A program made the translations under genes and the position numbers. A stretch of DNA of 64,000 nucleotides from Pigmentiphaga aceris. GTDB lineage: Bacteria; Pseudomonadota; Gammaproteobacteria; Burkholderiales; Burkholderiaceae_B. The stretch spans positions 2,542,001-2,606,000 of the forward strand of contig NZ_CP043046.1 of the NCBI RefSeq assembly GCF_008119665.1, written 5' to 3'. A model generated the notes under the pieces. It worked only from the letters and a program-made list of their open reading frames with translations, was not told the DNA's origin and did no database searches. Within the stretch, counting starts at the first letter, position 1. Each line of letters opens with the position of its first letter. Positions 17,262 through 56,265 of this stretch are shown one piece after another.

Positions 17262-18776
<1,515 letters not shown>

Positions 18777-18793
18777 GTCGACCGGCAGTACGG

Positions 18794-18830
18794 GCGGCCC
18801 GGCGCGCAAGCGCCGGGCCGCTTGTGTTTT
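18794..18830 (+). terminator. Hairpin between guaB and guaA
   Basis: Perfect 12-base arms GCGGCCCGGCGC / GCGCCGGGCCGC surround a GCAA loop (a GNRA tetraloop in RNA) and are followed by TTGTGTTTT. It is strong enough to end or attenuate transcription before guaA, which starts 15 bases later. It could also act as an RNA-stability hairpin. Confidence 0.6.
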
Positions 18831-18844
18831 CGGCGCCCACACAT

Positions 18845-20437
18845 ATGCACGATAGAATCCTGATCCTCGACTTCGGTTCACAAGTCACCCAGCTCATCGC
18901 CCGCCGCGTGCGCGAAGCCTCGGTCTACTGCGAAGTCCACCCCTGCGACGTCACGGATGACTTCATCCGCGAAGAACAAACCAAAGGCCTGAAGGGCATC
19001 ATCCTGTCCGGCAGCCACGCGTCTTCCTACGAAGACGGCTCCATGAAAGCCCCCCAAGCAGTGTTCGAAGCCGGCGTGCCCGTGCTCGGCATCTGCTACG
19101 GCATGCAAACCATGGCAGCCCAACTGGGCGGCAAAGTCACCTACAGCGACCACCGCGAATTCGGCTACGCCGAAGTGCGCGCCCACGGCCACACCAAACT
19201 GCTGGAAGGCATCGAAGACCACCGCACGCCGGAAGGTCATGGCATGCTCAAAGTCTGGATGAGCCACGGCGACCAGGTCACCTCGCTGCCCCCCGGCTTC
19301 AAGGTCATGGCATCGACCCCGTCGTGCCCCATCGCTGGCATTGCTGATGAAGAGCGCGGCTACTACGCCGTGCAATTCCACCCCGAAGTCACGCACACCG
19401 TGCAAGGCATGGCCATGCTCGCGCGCTTCGTGCACGAGATCTGCGGCTGCGGCACCGACTGGAACATGCCCGACTACGTCGAAGAAGCGATCGAAAAGAT
19501 CCGTGCCCAAGTCGGTTCTGATGACGTCATCCTGGGCCTGTCCGGCGGCGTGGATTCATCCGTTGCAGCTGCACTGATCCACCGCGCCATCGGCGACCAA
19601 CTGACCTGCGTCTTCGTTGATCACGGCCTACTGCGCCTGGACGAAGGCAAGCAAGTGATGCAGACGTTCGCTGAAAACATGGGTGTGAAAATCATCCACG
19701 TCGACGCAACCGAACAGTTCATGAGCAAGCTGCACGGCGTCACCGACCCCGAAGCCAAGCGCAAGATCATCGGTCGTGAGTTCGTCGAAGTGTTCCAGGA
19801 CCAGGCATCGAAGCTGAAGAGCGCGAAGTGGCTGGCACAGGGCACCATCTATCCGGACGTGATCGAATCTGCAGGTGCGAAGACCGGCAAGGCCGTGACG
19901 ATCAAGTCGCACCACAACGTGGGTGGCTTGCCGGATACCTTGAAGCTGTCGCTGCTGGAACCGCTGCGTGAGCTGTTCAAAGACGAAGTACGCAAGCTGG
20001 GCGTAGCACTTGGCCTGCCGCCGGCGATGGTGTATCGCCATCCGTTCCCTGGACCTGGTCTGGGTGTGCGGATTTTGGGCGAAGTGAAGAAAGAGTATGC
20101 CGACCTGCTGCGTCGTGCGGATGCGATCTTCATTGAAGAGCTGCGCAATACCGTTGATGCCGCGACTGGGAAGAGCTGGTATGACCTGACTTCGCAGGCG
20201 TTTGCGGTGTTCTTGCCGGTGAAGTCTGTGGGCGTTATGGGCGACGGGCGGACTTACGACTATGTTGTGGCGCTGCGGGCTGTTGAGACTTCGGACTTTA
20301 TGACGGCTGGATGGGCGGAGTTGCCTTATTCGCTGTTGGGGAAGGTTTCGGGGCGGATTATCAACGAAGTTCGCGGGATCAATCGGGTGGTTTATGACGT
20401 GAGTTCTAAGCCGCCGGCTACGATTGAGTGGGAATGA
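18845..20437 (+). CDS. guaA: GMP synthase (glutamine-hydrolysing)
   Basis: A 530-residue enzyme that aminates XMP to GMP. The N-terminal class I glutamine amidotransferase starts at [17 protein letters not shown] and has the nucleophile Cys83 in [12 protein letters not shown]. The ATP-pyrophosphatase domain has the P-loop [14 protein letters not shown] (~229). The C-terminus is canonical (KPPATIEWE). Codon choice shifts from C-ending to T/G-ending codons over the last ~400 bases. The 3' end of guaA is a well-known integration site for genomic islands, and island debris follows directly. Confidence 0.97.
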
Positions 20438-45717: not shown

Positions 45718-46587
45718 TCAACCTTGCAAAGCCGGCTGCCAGGGTTCTTGCGCCGCGTTGCTCAGGAACTGTGCGGGTCGACGCAATGCCGGATCGAAGG
45801 GATTCAGCTGTGCGCTGATTGCCGCCGCCTCCTTGCCCAGCGCCTTCACAATCTGCGGCAAACGCTCCGCATTCACCCGTTCCGCCAGCGTCCCGATACT
45901 GATCGCCGCCATCGCCGTCCCCTGCTGATCCAGAATCGGCACCGACACACCCGCCATCCCCGAAATCGGCCCCTCCCCATGGTCCGTCGCGGCATACCCC
46001 AGCGCCAACGTCTTCTCCACGCTCGCACGCAGATAGATCTCATCGAAATACGCCAGGTTGTGCAGCCTCGGCACATTGAAGCGAATGATCTCCTCGCGCT
46101 CCGCCTCGGGCATATAGGCCAGCATCAACAGCCCCGCCTGGCCCACGCCCAGCGGCACCCGGCCACCGATATCACCCGTGTACGACCGGATCGGCAGCGG
46201 CCCATCCACCCGGTCCACGCAGATCGCATCCACCCCCGCCCGCACCAGCAGGAACACTGTGTCCTTCAGCATGCCCGACAGCCGCAACAGGGCAGGGCGG
46301 CACAAGGCTTTCAAGGTGCTGTGCCGTCCGCCTGCGCGCGCCGCCAGCGAGAAGAATTCCACGCTCAACCGATACGACTTGCCGCCTTCGGGTTGTTCCA
46401 CCATGCCTTCCAGCGTCAGGCTGCGCAGAATCCGGTGCGCGGTTGCCTGAGCAAGGCCGGCCTGGGTGGCGATCTCGGTCAGTCGCAATCCTTCGCAGGG
46501 CGAGTTGGCCAACGCCCGGATGATCGCAAAGCCGCGCTGCAGCCCGCCTTGCGAATTATCGGAATCTTCAGAAGCCTGTTTGGCCAT
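45718..46587 (-). CDS. IclR-family transcriptional regulator
   Basis: A 289-residue IclR regulator. ATG 46587 opens MAKQASEDSDNSQGGLQRGF. The winged HTH is LRLTEIATQAGLAQATAHRILRSL. The effector domain carries DRVDGPLPIRSYTGDIGGRVPL and GMAGVSVPILDQQG. It is divergent from the ABC transporter/dehydrogenase operon and has IclR-type palindromes between them, so it is the likely local repressor or activator. Confidence 0.92.
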   Translation of the reverse strand: MAKQASEDSDNSQGGLQRGFAIIRALANSPCEGLRLTEIATQAGLAQATAHRILRSLTLEGMVEQPEGGKSYRLSVEFFSLAARAGGRHSTLKALCRPALLRLSGMLKDTVFLLVRAGVDAICVDRVDGPLPIRSYTGDIGGRVPLGVGQAGLLMLAYMPEAEREEIIRFNVPRLHNLAYFDEIYLRASVEKTLALGYAATDHGEGPISGMAGVSVPILDQQGTAMAAISIGTLAERVNAERLPQIVKALGKEAAAISAQLNPFDPALRRPAQFLSNAAQEPWQPALQG

Positions 46588-46601
46588 CTGCTGCCTTTTT
46601 T

Positions 46602-46689
46602 CGGAAATAATTTTGCAAAGTATAAGTCTCAATTCCGTTGAATGGAAAAATTGCCAAATAAATTCTGTCTGTCGGAATATTTGTTGACG
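46602..46689. promoter_or_regulatory. Candidate IclR operators and promoter of the ABC operon
   Basis: CGGAAATAATTTTG (46602-46615) matches most of the IclR-family consensus TGGAAATnATTTCCA. TTCCGTTGAATGGAA (46633-46647) is a near-perfect palindrome, and CGGAATATTTG occurs at 46673. A TTGACG -35-like element at 46684 has a weak -10 (TTAGAC) 17 bases later. The segment is AT-rich relative to both flanking genes. Confidence 0.45.
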
Positions 46690-51415: not shown

Positions 51416-52596
51416 CCGAACATCTGCGAACCGAGGTTGCGATCATTGGCGGCGGCATCGTCGGCGGCAGCGCGGCGCTGTTCCTGCGCAAGCGCGGCAT
51501 TGACGTCACCTTGCTGGAAACCGCCGTCTGCGGTGCCAAGGCCAGTGGCGTGAACTACGGCGGCGTGCGTCGTCAGGGCCGTGCGGTGGATCAGTTGCCG
51601 CTTGCGCGACGGGCGCATGCGCTGTGGGCAGAACTGCCTGCGCTGATCGGCACCGATGGTGAATACGTGCGCGCCGGGCACTTGAAGCTTGCGCGCAATG
51701 AAGAAGACCTGGCGCTGCTGGAAGCCTATCGCGCCAAGACGCGCGGCTATGGGTTGAACCTGGAAATCATTGCCGGCGAACGCTTCCGTCAGTTGTACTC
51801 CTGGCTGGGCAAGGGCGTGATCGCAGGGTCCTTGTGTCCCGAAGACGGTCATGCCAATCCACGCTTGGTTTCACCCGCGTTTGGTCGTGCAGCAGCCCGC
51901 TTGGGTGCACGCGTGCTGGAAAACCACCGGGTCACGGCAGTGCATCACGACGGCAAGGAATTTGTGCTGCGTGTGGGCGATGCGCTCGAAATCCGCGCGC
52001 GCGTGTTGCTTAATTGCGCAGGAGCCTGGGGCAACGAGTTTGCCCGTGCATTCAATGAGCCCGTGCCCGAAGAAGCCATCCATCCGCTGATGATGGTGAC
52101 GGAGCCGTTGCCAGTGTTTTCCGATCTGAGCCTGGGTATTCAGGGCGGCAGCATCTACGCGCGCCAGGTTGCGCGTGGCAACGTCATCATTGGCGGTGGA
52201 CGCGGCATCAGCGCTGGCCCGGACTTCGCACAACCTGATTTTGCCCGACCCGGTCGGGCAGCCATTCCGACATTGCTGGCAGCAGTAGGGCGTGTCATGC
52301 CCGCGCTGGCCAATGCGCATGTCATTCGTTTCTGGTCGGGCGTGGAAGGAAATATGCCCGATCACAATCCGGTGCTTGGCCCCAGCGGGACCACGCCCGG
52401 TCTGTTCCATGCTTTCGGTTTTTCCGGTGCCGGTTTCCAGATCGGTCCGGCGGTGGGAGAGGTGCTGGCCGATCTGGTCACCACCGGCACAAGCGCCATT
52501 CCCATCGACACCTTTGGCATTGCCCGATACGCCACGTCCACCCGGACGCAGGTTGATCAATCCCATCCCGCTGGAACCCACGAGGAGACAACATGA
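51412..52596 (+). CDS. DAO-family flavoprotein subunit (HcnC/OoxB-like)
   Basis: A 394-residue D-amino-acid-oxidase-family protein. The FAD loop is VAIIGGGIVGGSAALFLRK, and ASGVNYGGVRRQGR follows. The C-terminal GPSGTTPGLFHAFGFSGAGFQIGP block closes the FAD site. It is the substrate-oxidising beta subunit in HcnC/OoxB/sarcosine-oxidase-beta complexes. ATGA overlaps tie it to the BFD subunit and the binding protein. Confidence 0.9.
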   Translation: MTEHLRTEVAIIGGGIVGGSAALFLRKRGIDVTLLETAVCGAKASGVNYGGVRRQGRAVDQLPLARRAHALWAELPALIGTDGEYVRAGHLKLARNEEDLALLEAYRAKTRGYGLNLEIIAGERFRQLYSWLGKGVIAGSLCPEDGHANPRLVSPAFGRAAARLGARVLENHRVTAVHHDGKEFVLRVGDALEIRARVLLNCAGAWGNEFARAFNEPVPEEAIHPLMMVTEPLPVFSDLSLGIQGGSIYARQVARGNVIIGGGRGISAGPDFAQPDFARPGRAAIPTLLAAVGRVMPALANAHVIRFWSGVEGNMPDHNPVLGPSGTTPGLFHAFGFSGAGFQIGPAVGEVLADLVTTGTSAIPIDTFGIARYATSTRTQVDQSHPAGTHEETT

Positions 52597-53666
52597 AACA
52601 CCAATCCCTGACTGTCAGCGCCCTTGCCGGCGCAATCAAGTGCCTGGCGGGCGCAGCCGTGCTGGCTGCCGTGTCGACCGGTGCCATGGCACAGACCAAG
52701 ACCCTGTATGTCGGCATGAACGGCGGCGACATGGAGCGCGCGTTCACGCAGCACGTGTTCCCCGATTTCGAGAAAGCCAACGATGTGAAGATCGTGGTGG
52801 TTCCGGGCACCTCGGCCGATATTCTGGCCAAGGCACAAGCCTTCAAGGACAAGCCGCAAATGCACGTCATGTTCCTGGACGACGGCGTGATGGTGCGTGC
52901 CGCGTCGATGGGCCTGTGCCAGAAGCTGGGCGACGACCCGGTGATGAAAGAGGTCTACCCGACGGCGCGTCTGAACGGTGACATGGCTGTCGGCATCGAC
53001 ATGGGCATGACCGGTCTGGCCTACAACACCAAGATGTTCAAGGACAACGGTTGGGCACCCCCGACGTCGTGGATGGATTTGGCTGACCCGAAGTACAAGG
53101 GCAAGGTCGTGTTCCAGTCGGCCGCGTCCAGCACTTTCGGTCTGCATGGCTTCCTGATGTACAACCGCATCAAGGGTGGCGACGAGAAGAATGTGGACCC
53201 GGGCTTCAAGGCTTGGTCGGGTGATGTGGGCAAGAACGTGCTCGAATACATCACGAATTCGGCCAAAATTGCTGAGATGGTGCAGACTGGTGAAGCGGCG
53301 ATTTTCCCGCTGACGCCGACTGCTGTGGGTCGTCTGCAGAAGCGTGGCATTCCGGTTGAGTATGTGCAGCCGAAGGAAGGTTCGGTGATTCTGATGGTGG
53401 CTGAGTGTGTGATCGCGAACAATAGCGAGCCGGAATTGGCGCAGAAGCTGGCTCACTATCTGTTGTCGGCACCGGCTCAGGCTAAGGCGCTTGAGTTCGG
53501 CAATCACTTCCCGTCGAATACGAATGTGACGGCGTCTGGTGAGGCCAAGCCGTATCTGGATAAGTTCCAGGGCTATATGAAGACGGCGACGGTGCTTGAT
53601 TGGGATCTGATCAATGCAAATCGTCAGCAGTGGAATACGCGTTGGAATCGCGCTGTAGAGCAGTGA
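52593..53666 (+). CDS. Periplasmic substrate-binding protein, PotD type
   Basis: A 357-residue extracellular solute-binding protein. The signal peptide ends near VSTGAMAQTKTLYVG. Family features: FEKANDVKIVVVPGTSADILAK, GMTGLAYNTKMFKDNG and WMDLADPKYKGKV. It captures a polyamine-like or opine-like cation for the upstream transporter. Its place at the end of the dehydrogenase cistrons shows that uptake and oxidation are one unit. Codon use changes to T/G-ending codons in the last ~330 bases. Confidence 0.92.
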   Translation: MKHQSLTVSALAGAIKCLAGAAVLAAVSTGAMAQTKTLYVGMNGGDMERAFTQHVFPDFEKANDVKIVVVPGTSADILAKAQAFKDKPQMHVMFLDDGVMVRAASMGLCQKLGDDPVMKEVYPTARLNGDMAVGIDMGMTGLAYNTKMFKDNGWAPPTSWMDLADPKYKGKVVFQSAASSTFGLHGFLMYNRIKGGDEKNVDPGFKAWSGDVGKNVLEYITNSAKIAEMVQTGEAAIFPLTPTAVGRLQKRGIPVEYVQPKEGSVILMVAECVIANNSEPELAQKLAHYLLSAPAQAKALEFGNHFPSNTNVTASGEAKPYLDKFQGYMKTATVLDWDLINANRQQWNTRWNRAVEQ

Positions 53667-53695
53667 TTTTTTGCTGATCTGCTGATGGTTGTGTG

Positions 53696-53728
53696 AACGG
53701 CTTCTGGGTTTCTGGGAGCCGTTTTTTT
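53696..53728 (+). terminator. Rho-independent terminator after the binding-protein gene
   Basis: AACGGCT (53696-53702) pairs with AGCCGTT (53717-53723), followed by TTTTT. It lies 30 bases after the stop codon. Confidence 0.75.
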
Positions 53729-53744
53729 ATGGGCGTTTTGTTTG

Positions 53745-54131
53745 TTCTTTTGCCAGTCGTGGGTGGTGGGGCCGGGTTGGCTGCCCCGCTTGACTTAGGC
53801 GTCGGGTCTGCGCCCTCCACCTTGTCCAGAAGGGCAGCCAACCCGGCCCCACCACCCACGCCTTCAAAGACGTTTGGTTAAAAGCTGATCCCGCCTTTGG
53901 GCGGCTGCCGTTTTTCTGGCCGCCGGGTGCTGGACTTGGTTCTCGGCATGCGTGGGCCGCCATTCTTGATCTCCAAGCGGCTTGTCTCGGGGATTGGCTG
54001 GCCAGGTCGCCACGAAGCGGTTTCTCCGGCTCACGGTTTGGTGGGTTCTTCAGTTGCCTTTTACGGCAGCGCCACGCAAGGAAATTTGCGCGTCTGTTTG
54101 GTGGTGGGGTGACACCGAAGCGGGTGGCCGC
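53745..54131 (+). repeat. Hairpin repeat element, copy A
   Basis: A ~387-base element starting TTCTTTTGCCAGTCGTGGGTG. It opens with perfect 29-base inverted arms (53758-53786 and 53832-53860) around a 45-base spacer. A body of about 270 bases follows, ending GAAGCGGGTGGCCGC. Copy B (55191-55576) is the same element in the opposite orientation, with spacer and body clearly alignable (e.g. GGGGATTGGCTGGCCAGGTC and CGCCACGAAGCG in both). The arms differ at six positions between copies, yet remain perfectly paired in each. Both copies lie directly 3' of a gene on the same strand. Confidence 0.85.
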
Positions 54132-54370
54132 CGCATTACGGCATGCGGAGAGGGGTAGCGACGATCGTGGCGCTGGCGGGTGATTTGCGTAAAGGCGCTT
54201 GTGCTGTGTAGGTCGAGGCACCTGCCTTTGGTGCCTGAAGCCGTCTTTATTGGAAAAAATAACTTATAAATCAATAAGATACGATCTTAAAAAGTACTTT
54301 TCCGTTTCGGGAAAAATTCATCGGCCCTATCAACTGGTGCACAGAGGAAGCCTGTCTTGACTGCTTTAAA

Positions 54371-54392
54371 ATACTGTATAAAAATACAGTAT
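54371..54392. promoter_or_regulatory. LexA-like SOS box upstream of the GFA gene
   Basis: ATACTGTAT-AAAA-ATACAGTAT is a perfect palindrome containing CTGT-N8-ACAG with an AT-only centre. It matches the gamma/betaproteobacterial LexA consensus TACTGTATATATATACAGTA except at the centre. It ends 17 bases before the ATG, and a TTGACT -35-like element lies at 54357. LexA binding here would block transcription of the GFA gene. Confidence 0.75.
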
Positions 54393-54409
54393 TGGTAAAA
54401 GGAGTTCCG

Positions 54410-54802
54410 ATGATAAATGGCAGTTGCTGCTGCGGCGCAATCAAATTTCAGTTGACTTCACCTCCTGGCATGATGGGCATGTGTCACTGCTCTCGCTGCC
54501 GTAAGGTTGGGGCAAGTGCTTTGGCATTCGTAGATAAAGGCTCATTCAACTTACTTGAGGGGAAGGAGTTTATTCAACGATATGAGCCGGAAGCACCTTT
54601 TAAGTATGCAAGGACTTTCTGCAAAAACTGTGGGACTTCATTGGGTGAAATTGGCTCGGAAAGTGAGTCATTTCCAATTTCAGTCAATTGCTTGGATGAT
54701 GACCCAGAGGTAAGAACACAATTTCACGTATATGTTGGTTCCAAGCCTGCTTGGTATGAGATTTGCGATAGCGCGAAGCAATTTGAAGAGAGTGCTGCCT
54801 AA
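54410..54802 (+). CDS. GFA-family (glutathione-dependent formaldehyde-activating-like) zinc protein
   Basis: A 130-residue protein; ATG 54410 follows AAAAGGAG. The GFA/DUF636 zinc motifs are GSCCCGAIKF, MCHCSRCRK and FCKNCGTSL. The family includes Gfa and CENP-V-like proteins; most bacterial members have no proven substrate. Base composition is much more AT-rich than that of neighbouring genes. It sits alone between two inverted repeat copies and behind a LexA-like box, so it may be a laterally acquired, DNA-damage-induced gene (inference). Confidence 0.88.
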   Translation: MINGSCCCGAIKFQLTSPPGMMGMCHCSRCRKVGASALAFVDKGSFNLLEGKEFIQRYEPEAPFKYARTFCKNCGTSLGEIGSESESFPISVNCLDDDPEVRTQFHVYVGSKPAWYEICDSAKQFEESAA

Positions 54803-55190
54803 TAAAAAACCATTTATATAACTGGATTTTTATTCTCTATTGCATACTTGGCAATATCTAGGTTTCCAATATAAGTGCAATATCAATCCCCTGACTGGCA
54901 TTTCGATGCTATTAAATTCAGGCTGATTGTCAAGGCCGAATAAAAATTAAATTGCCCTGGCGAGAAATTGTCAGGGCAATTTTTCTATGCACCAGTTAAT
55001 TCTCGCGGTTCGAGAAATTGCTAACGCGAATGGCTGCTCAGTTCTTCTTCTAACTCCACACTTTACCGTTCATCACTGCCTCGAACATTCGTCATCGCTC
55101 CGAACGTTGATCATCAGCCCGACCGCTCAATGCGCAGCATTAAAAGCGCGAATCTGCAGCGCCCCGCCTTTTCGTCGCATTACCTGGTGT
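54803..55190. other. AT-rich segment after the GFA gene
   Basis: It holds a terminator at 54951-54985 and otherwise no gene. A plus-strand frame at 54987-55271 runs through the terminator tail into repeat copy B and is not accepted. Confidence 0.6.
54951..54985 (+). terminator. Rho-independent terminator downstream of the GFA gene
   Basis: ATTGCCCTG (54951-54959) pairs with CAGGGCAAT (54972-54980), followed by TTTTCT. It lies 148 bases after the GFA stop and would close a monocistronic transcript. Confidence 0.8.
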
Positions 55191-55576
55191 GCGGCCACCC
55201 GCTTCCAAGTCACCCCACCACCAAGCAGGCGCGTGACATCGTTAAGTGGCACTGCCGTAAAAGGCCCCTGAAAGACGGCCCGAGACGTGAGCCGCTGAGT
55301 CGCTTCGTGGCGACCTGGCCAGCCAATCCCCGAGGCCAGCCGCGTAGCGATGAAGGACGGTGGCCTACAAAGGCCGAGAACCGCATCCAGCACCAAGCAG
55401 CCAGAAAATTGCAGATCGCCCAAAGGCGGGATTGGCTTTTAACCAAGCCGCTTTGAAGGCGTGGGTGTCGGGGGCGTGGCGGCTGCCCTTCTGGACGACG
55501 TGGAGGGCGGGAGACCCGACGCGTAGGTCCAGCGGGGCAGCCGCCACGCCCCCGACACCCACGACTGGCAGAAGAA
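55191..55576 (-). repeat. Hairpin repeat element, copy B (inverted)
   Basis: The same element as copy A but on the minus strand. Read from 55576 downward it starts TTCTTCTGCCAGTCGTGGGTG. Perfect 29-base arms lie at 55460-55488 and 55535-55563 around a 46-base spacer that aligns with that of copy A (GCGTCGGGTCT and GTCCAGAA shared). It ends in GAAGCGGGTGGCCGC at 55191. It lies ~60 bases downstream of the Lrp gene in the same orientation. Open frames on both strands are not conserved between the copies. Confidence 0.85.
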
Positions 55577-55634
55577 CCACCACACCGTCACAAAGCAACA
55601 AAACAAGAAGCGCAAACGCCCCTCAACCCTCACA

Positions 55635-56141
55635 TCAACCGCGCTGATCAACACCATCTTCAGGTACAGGAATGCGAGTAACCGCCTTGATCTCACGTAA
55701 GGCCAAGCTGGACTGGATCGCGGTAATGCCCGGCTGTTTGCGCAAGACTTCTTCCACGAAGCGACCGTAGCTTTCCAGGTCGGTTGCCAACACGCTGAGC
55801 ATATAGTCGGCGGCACCCGTCACCTTATGGCAAGACAGCACTTCGGGATGATCGAGGATGATGCGTTCGAAGTTATCGGGTGCATTGGCGGAATGATCGC
55901 CGAAGGTGACCTGCGCAAACGCGAGCACGTCGTAGCCTAACTTACGCCTGTCCAGATTGGCCTGATAGTCCTTGATGATGCCCTGATCTTCCAGACGCTT
56001 GCGGCGACGCCAGCACGGGGTGACGGTCATCGACAGACGTTCTCCCAGCGCTGCGCTGCTCAGACTGCCGTCTTCCTGCAAGTGATGCAGCAGGGCACGA
56101 TCTGTCTCGTCTAGCTCAATCAAGGGTAAGCATTTGCTCAT
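55635..56141 (-). CDS. Lrp/AsnC-family transcriptional regulator
   Basis: A 168-residue regulator. ATG 56141 opens MSKCLPLIELDETDRALLHHL. The HTH is LSSAALGERLSMTVTPCWRRRKRLE. The RAM/ligand domain follows (VLSCHKVTGAADYMLSVLATDLESY). It is divergent from the deacetylase-like gene with 124 bases between them and probably controls it in response to an amino acid or amine. Confidence 0.92.
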   Translation of the reverse strand: MSKCLPLIELDETDRALLHHLQEDGSLSSAALGERLSMTVTPCWRRRKRLEDQGIIKDYQANLDRRKLGYDVLAFAQVTFGDHSANAPDNFERIILDHPEVLSCHKVTGAADYMLSVLATDLESYGRFVEEVLRKQPGITAIQSSLALREIKAVTRIPVPEDGVDQRG

Positions 56142-56265
56142 TTTGATGGGTATCGGCGAATAATTTTGCCGTAGTGACAAATAGTGGACAGTTTAAAGCA
56201 AAGCTTTTTCCACGCGCCGCCACCATAATTTTCCGTTCGCAATCTGCTTTCGAACAGGAATTTTC

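What the first reader, a model, noticed from the sequence alone, without database searches (positions are those of the whole stretch)
53745..55576. Inverted pair of ~387-base repeats with covarying 29-base hairpins
Copies A (53745-54131) and B (55191-55576) face each other around a 1.06-kb AT-rich segment. In each copy the 29-base arms are perfectly complementary, yet the arms differ between copies at six positions. Every change is matched on the opposite arm, which implies that the hairpin itself is maintained, as an RNA structure, a cruciform or a protein target, or by arm-to-arm conversion. Each copy sits directly 3' of a gene on the same strand (potD-type, lrp). No transposase is visible, so this looks like a non-autonomous or REP/BIME-like family.
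Basis: seen in the sequence. Interest (0 to 1): 0.72.

Follow-up and report, generated by a model that had tools for sequence, protein, structure and literature searches.

The report
Paired giant hairpin repeats skewing neighbours
A bacterium carries dozens of facing pairs of long hairpin-forming DNA repeats between its genes, and beside them the base make-up of one DNA strand is shifted over about a thousand bases, as if something repeatedly starts there and works outward.

Summary

I read this as a strand-specific process that starts at each arm and runs outward; its enzyme is unknown, and selection for Rho termination is the main rival.

The parts
53745..54131 (+). Arm A (R repeat, 387 bp), Y-type inner junction; well conserved from about 53752 inward
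53758..53860 (-). Hairpin of arm A; the strand that keeps pairing across the family is the minus (outward) strand
54132..54230 (+). Y-type conserved inner segment (end approximate)
54410..54802 (+). Cargo gene in the AT-rich interior, GFA family (PF04828); not part of the conserved element
55076..55190 (-). X-type conserved inner segment (end approximate), with degenerate CGTTC-containing repeats seen by eye
55191..55576 (-). Arm B (R repeat, 386 bp), X-type inner junction
55460..55563 (+). Hairpin of arm B; structured strand is the plus (outward) strand
52745..53744 (+). Skewed flank of arm A: + strand GC skew .30, .23, .19, .08, .07 in 200-nt steps outward; T over A only in the first 400 nt
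55577..55776 (-). Skewed flank of arm B: GC skew .25 in the first 200 nt, then -.08, -.02, .16; a weak case
52593..53666 (+). Flanking gene: extracellular solute-binding protein
55635..56180 (-). Flanking gene: Lrp/AsnC-type regulator

Best explanation
SHOWN: a family, found so far in one genome, of two-armed non-coding repeat elements. The hairpin of each arm keeps its pairing as a single strand, on the strand that runs outward from the element into the neighbouring gene. The arms are also the inner edge of a ~1 kb zone in which the inward-running strand is poor in C and A and rich in G and T. INFERRED (likely): the zone is the footprint of a recurrent strand-specific process that starts at the arm and moves outward, leaving the inward strand single-stranded or copying it with errors, so that C becomes T and A becomes G on it. 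INFERRED (my best guess at the step): the outward strand makes a structured RNA (or an unwound ssDNA hairpin) whose outer end is a primer or nick site; repair-type synthesis runs outward for some hundreds of bases and fades, much as ColE1 RNA II primes a stretch of polymerase I synthesis (recalled). A facing pair then works in both directions and a single arm in one. The element persists mainly between converging genes, where outward activity harms least.
For: Family: 87 arms, 41 facing pairs, 5 singles. Single-strand pairing: 330 G.U to 2 A.C cells and 62 to 1 parsimony changes from Watson-Crick (P 1e-17, which treats changes as independent); X-type arms 138:0, Y-type 76:0; outward strand more stable with RNA parameters in 87 of 87; on 30 chosen arms 95.6% of cells paired and 11 of 42 pairs changed on both sides, reached by 0 and 6 of 500 shuffles. 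Not coding in the one frame tested: median 22 codons to a stop; no clear 3-base periodicity. Zone: R-strand GC skew .31.25.17.09.03.01 in 200-nt steps, 82 of 82 paired arms positive in the first 200 nt and 95% in the next; at 4-fold sites of 68 genes ending at an arm C falls from about .39-.44 beyond 1 kb to .14, while 232 baseline ORFs are flat; two-fold sites show both C to T (T share .26-.31 to .65) and A to G (G share .54 to .84). Present with neighbouring genes in either direction; in 5 single arms on the arm side only, and not next to the inner end in 4 long interiors. Five unrelated facing hairpin pairs in a genus mate show none; pooled MurJ of 10 relatives is flat. Long tandem arrays (39 bp x 3.8, 18 bp x 9.6) sit at the outer ends of one L051 and one L067 arm.
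Against: No transcript, promoter or enzyme has been shown. 65 further changes go from Watson-Crick to other mismatches and 184 cells are such, mostly in the inner part of the stem, so pairing there is loose. Skew strength does not follow hairpin energy (rho .11, P .29). The effect at 4-fold sites is about half as strong where the neighbouring gene starts at the arm, so gene transcription or selection may contribute. Copy B in the window has only a short skew. R as a whole is not short of C (C .32, G .32). G rises more than T at 4-fold sites, so C to T alone does not describe it. L063 and L064 elements are 95.6% identical yet their flanks are shifted, so the zone is older than the last copying event or mutates much faster. 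By general knowledge ssDNA also tolerates G.T better than A.C, so RNA is not proven. No close relative was found to polarise the changes.
Confidence: 0.4

Rival explanations
1. Selection, not mutation: outward transcripts from the element would run antisense into the converging genes. The flanks have been selected to be C/A-rich and G-poor on the outward strand so that Rho binds and stops them, with the arm hairpin as part of a two-way Rho-dependent terminator.
For: Outward strand at the arm's outer edge is A .43, C .35, G .14, T .09; 24 of 40 classified pairs lie between converging genes against 39 of 201 baseline gaps, and 0 of 40 against 40 of 201 between diverging genes. REPs are reported to aid Rho-dependent termination (PMC2817692, passages seen).
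Against: The shift reaches 600-800 nt into coding sequence and is also present where the next gene is read in the outward direction, where a Rho site could hurt.
Confidence: 0.25
2. Nick or break at the arm followed by resection: a hairpin endonuclease (SbcCD-like or HUH-type) cuts the outward-strand hairpin, the outward strand is resected or unwound, and the inward strand stays single-stranded and deaminates.
For: Polarity, one-sidedness and the C to T plus A to G pattern fit a 3'-ended single strand; tandem arrays at the outer edge of two arms.
Against: No Y1 transposase domain found in the genome; other HUH enzymes were not sought. Single arms show no shift on their inner side, which a two-ended break would predict.
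Confidence: 0.25
3. R-loops of the neighbouring genes: RNA polymerase stalls at the arm and the non-template (inward) strand is exposed behind it.
For: The effect is stronger where the gene is read toward the arm: G+T share at 4-fold sites .81.80.74 against .57.61.65.
Against: Still present for the 15 or 16 arms whose gene is read away from the arm.
Confidence: 0.15
4. A plain local duplication with arm-to-arm (quasi-palindrome) correction.
For: Both window copies have perfect arms.
Against: 87 copies and a 330:2 strand bias of the G.T/A.C mismatches.
Confidence: 0.01

Closest known systems
REPIN / BIME (REP doublets, RAYT-mobilised)
   Same: Inverted pairs of hairpin units acting as one unit, extragenic, with compensatory stem changes, in many copies (PMC3116915: abstract and passages; PMC2817692: passages).
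   Different: Arms of ~387 bp, where REPs are 20-40 bp (PMC3733652, abstract start in the listing); asymmetric X/Y interior; no Y1 transposase found; pairing kept on the outward strand; ~1 kb one-sided composition zone.
Unrelated ~80-bp facing hairpin pairs in genus mate G008
   Same: Facing (+...-) pairs, 81-98 nt apart; 5 pairs among 18 hits in 400 kb.
   Different: Arm A finds no match in G008, and these pairs have no flanking skew.
ColE1-type RNA-primed origin (recalled)
   Same: A structured RNA read toward the synthesis start; a fading polymerase I stretch of the order of 1 kb.
   Different: Chromosomal, 46 loci, mostly two facing arms; no replication shown.
Strand gradients of mitochondrial DNA (recalled; only abstract starts seen in the listing)
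   Same: Exposed strand gains G and T at synonymous sites in a gradient.
   Different: Here local, ~1 kb, at many loci of a bacterial chromosome.

Membership tests
REP/REPIN/BIME | Short (20-40 bp) palindromic unit | tested here: not met
   Arm 386-387 bp with a 103-104-bp hairpin in the window
REP/REPIN/BIME | Units in inverted pairs | tested here: met
   41 of 46 loci are facing pairs
REP/REPIN/BIME | Extragenic (gene 3'-end preference is recalled) | tested here: met
   24 convergent, 16 tandem, 0 divergent of 40 classified, 1 unclassified; a cruder caller gave 24, 16 and 1 divergent of 41
REP/REPIN/BIME | Cognate RAYT (Y1 transposase) in the genome | tested here: not met
   PF01797: 0 matches; positive in 5 of 14 control genomes
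Retron / mobile group II intron | Reverse transcriptase in the genome | tested here: not met
   PF00078: 0 matches; positive in 3 of 14 control genomes
MITE | Target-site duplication | tested here: inconclusive
   None seen by eye in the outer flanks, no systematic search; no empty site available
Known structured RNA (Rfam 15) | Match at the gathering score | tested here: not met
   0 in the 64 kb window; matches below gathering, mostly to long-hairpin families, in the permissive search
Intrinsic terminator | U-run after the hairpin on the transcribed strand | tested here: not met
   Outward strand at the arm's outer edge is 9% T, family mean
RNA-primed origin | RNA-DNA switch and DNA synthesis at the site | not testable with these tools
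   Needs end mapping

The most novel reading that the evidence does not exclude
The pairs are chromosomal, RNA-dependent start sites: each arm makes a structured outward RNA that primes DNA synthesis into the neighbouring gene, leaving a permanent strand-specific mutation footprint of about 1 kb. That would be a new class of repeat that locally and directionally rewrites the DNA beside it without a transposase or reverse transcriptase. A second, unrelated giant hairpin family in the same genome with shifted 5' flanks (3 copies) could be a second instance.
Probability: 0.2. Interest if true: 0.95.

Novelty: new variant of a known kind. Interest (0 to 1): 0.8.

Why it matters
Composition skews are normally read as traces of genome-wide replication or of transcription. 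Here dozens of defined sites carry a one-sided ~1 kb gradient that ends at a structured repeat, so the cause of a strand asymmetry can be tested locus by locus, with 46 replicates, single-arm cases and a control genome. It also gives a strand test (G.U against A.C) that tells single-strand function from cruciforms for other repeat families.

Tried and rejected
Local duplication: refuted. Cruciform and quasi-palindrome correction: rejected by the strand bias. Protein coding on the outward strand: rejected for the frame tested; a window ORF across arm A has no Pfam match. RAYT/IS200 and RT-based models: no such domain found in the genome. Fold of one arm on the other: within-pair identity .811 equals the overall mean .812, so no selection for arm-arm pairing was seen. 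Replication-fork direction: shift on both sides (GC skew .21 and .27). A guiding motif in the flanks: none stood out among 7-mers. Structure of the R body outside the hairpin was not resolved. Enrichment of loci toward the terminus is weak (KS P .024). Promoter consensus in X and Y junctions: none recognised by eye. Arm A found nothing in plasmid and phage records; one exact motif each found nothing in viral contigs and in the species-genome collection. One search used wrong reading frames for the relatives and was replaced. My searches of an open-access library showed no description of this repeat or of such zones in their listings; papers outside that library were not searched.

Full report
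What is there. Copies A and B are as described: both have exact 29-base arms, differing between copies at six positions. A pattern from the body finds 43 forward and 44 reverse copies in the 6,165,255-bp genome, against 0 for the reversed control; a second pattern from the inner end finds 42 and 44. They form 46 loci: 41 pairs, all facing inward, and 5 single arms; neighbouring loci are at least 5.3 kb apart. These counts are lower bounds for diverged copies.

The unit. The sequence inside each arm is of type X, Y or a Y-like type Z. The 41 pairs are 30 X-Y, 5 X-Z, 4 Z-Z and 2 Y-Z; X-X and Y-Y do not occur, and X is on the left in 18 and on the right in 17. Interiors are 132-512 nt in 37 of 41 pairs; four are longer (1,059-3,088 nt) and hold other genes, such as the GFA gene in this window. 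L063 and L064 agree at 95.6% over 914 bp, and the match stops within about 10 nt of the outer arm ends, so the pair moves or converts as a whole. Arms within a pair are no more alike (.811) than any two arms (.812). The outer edge continues into a G/T-rich tail of degenerate ~40-bp units, seen by eye. Of 63 tandem arrays that TRF reports over the 46 loci, 7 lie at outer ends; two of these are long (39 bp x 3.8 and 18 bp x 9.6).

Where. Of 40 classified pairs 24 lie between converging genes, 16 between tandem genes and 0 between diverging genes, against 39, 122 and 40 of 201 baseline gaps of 60 nt or more. The gene calls come from a home-made codon model trained partly on these loci; a cruder first caller gave 1 divergent of 41.

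Who has it. Copy A finds nothing in 60 relatives, 10 of them of the same genus. A covariance model of the hairpin finds no other genome among 267 of the family and 398 of the order (overlapping sets). For such large sets the tool uses strict filters, and the answers show 14 and 9 candidates scored in the genomes listed. Plasmid, phage, viral and species-genome collections gave no match to arm A or to one exact motif. By one protein, MurJ, the best named matches are Pigmentiphaga and Verticiella at 70-73%, with Achromobacter at 67-71% close behind, so this is a distant Alcaligenaceae lineage.

The hairpin is a single strand. About half of the G.U cells are two near-constant pairs; without them the ratio is near 159 to 2. 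On a tree of the arm bodies 62 changes go from Watson-Crick to G.U, 1 to A.C and 65 to other mismatches. X and Y arms agree. On 30 of the 87 arms, chosen by eye for diversity, 95.6% of cells pair, 11 of 42 pairs change on both sides, and sliding the partner destroys it. A cruciform or copying between arms would give G.T and A.C equally. So selection acts on RNA or ssDNA of the strand that runs from the element outward. It is not coding in the frame tested.

The zone. In 82 of 82 paired arms the strand running toward the arm has positive GC skew in the first 200 nt; the mean falls from .31 to near 0 by 1 kb, with T over A in parallel. At 4-fold sites of 68 genes ending at an arm, C falls from about .39-.44 to .14, G rises from .36-.39 to .60 and T from .12-.15 to .22, while 232 ORFs of 200 aa or more from 20 baseline windows are flat. 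Two-fold sites show C to T and A to G separately. Codon positions 1 and 2 change little. 65 of 68 such genes exceed the 95th percentile of 364 baseline genes; that baseline includes the window's own genes. The zone is one-sided: the strand running toward the arm from inside has slightly negative GC skew near the arm in all 8 inner sides of four long interiors and on the far side of all five single arms. It is seen with either fork direction. It is weaker where the gene starts at the arm. MurJ of ten relatives, pooled, lacks it. Five facing hairpin pairs of another family in genus mate G008 lack it.

A second case. A gene with an extreme shift outside the family (L141, G+T share .92) ends at another giant hairpin of ~250 bp. 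Three copies exist (one of 129 bp), and all three have shifted 5' flanks, though in two of the three the same strand is also G-rich downstream. In 458 kb of this genome the three hairpin spans of 100 nt or more (this one and the two in the window, copy B weakly) have the shift and three short ones do not show it clearly; four long spans in 400 kb of G008 do not show a clear shift. Against a strict link, other shifted gene ends had no hairpin that I saw.

Mechanism. The data ask for something that starts at the arm, moves outward, needs a single-stranded fold of the outward strand, works from one arm alone and leaves the other strand poor in C and A for about 1 kb. RNA-primed or nick-primed outward synthesis fits best in my view. 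Selection for Rho termination of outward transcripts is the main rival, since the outward strand is C/A-rich and G-poor. Literature seen: REPs interact with DNA polymerase I and aid Rho-dependent termination (PMC2817692, passages). The polymerase I gradient on ColE1 is recalled; the paper was not held.

Against this reading: hairpin energy does not predict the shift, copy B's zone is short, G rises more than T at 4-fold sites, no enzyme, promoter or RNA is shown, and L063/L064 leave the timing open.

Noticed in passing
L141:17168-17420; also genome 2420774-2421017 and 3833954-3834082: A second giant hairpin family (about 250 bp; fold about -172 and -186 kcal/mol for the two full copies) with outer stems that differ between copies but stay complementary; 5' flanks shifted toward G and T.
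   Followed up: partly
L161, L164, L166, L168, L170 (genus mate G008): An unrelated ~80-bp hairpin repeat in facing pairs with 81-98-nt spacer, no flank skew.
   Followed up: partly
window 18644-20437 (+) and L124 2847-5396 (+): Genes with strongly G/T-shifted 3' ends followed by foreign-looking DNA and no arm: possible former sites.
   Followed up: no
window 45718-46632 (-): Gene with shifted 3' end (.80) and no hairpin seen downstream.
   Followed up: no
L054, L062, L083 interiors: IS256-like and IS3-like transposase genes or fragments inside elements (recalled by eye).
   Followed up: no
L069 interior (3,088 nt): Three cargo genes, LysR-, SDR- and GST-like by eye.
   Followed up: no
interiors of L065, L066, L067, L075, L076: 19-bp tandem repeats, iteron-like, on the X side.
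   Followed up: no
whole genome: Loci lean toward the terminus half (KS P .024; terminus placed near 3.2 Mb from sampled GC skew).
   Followed up: partly
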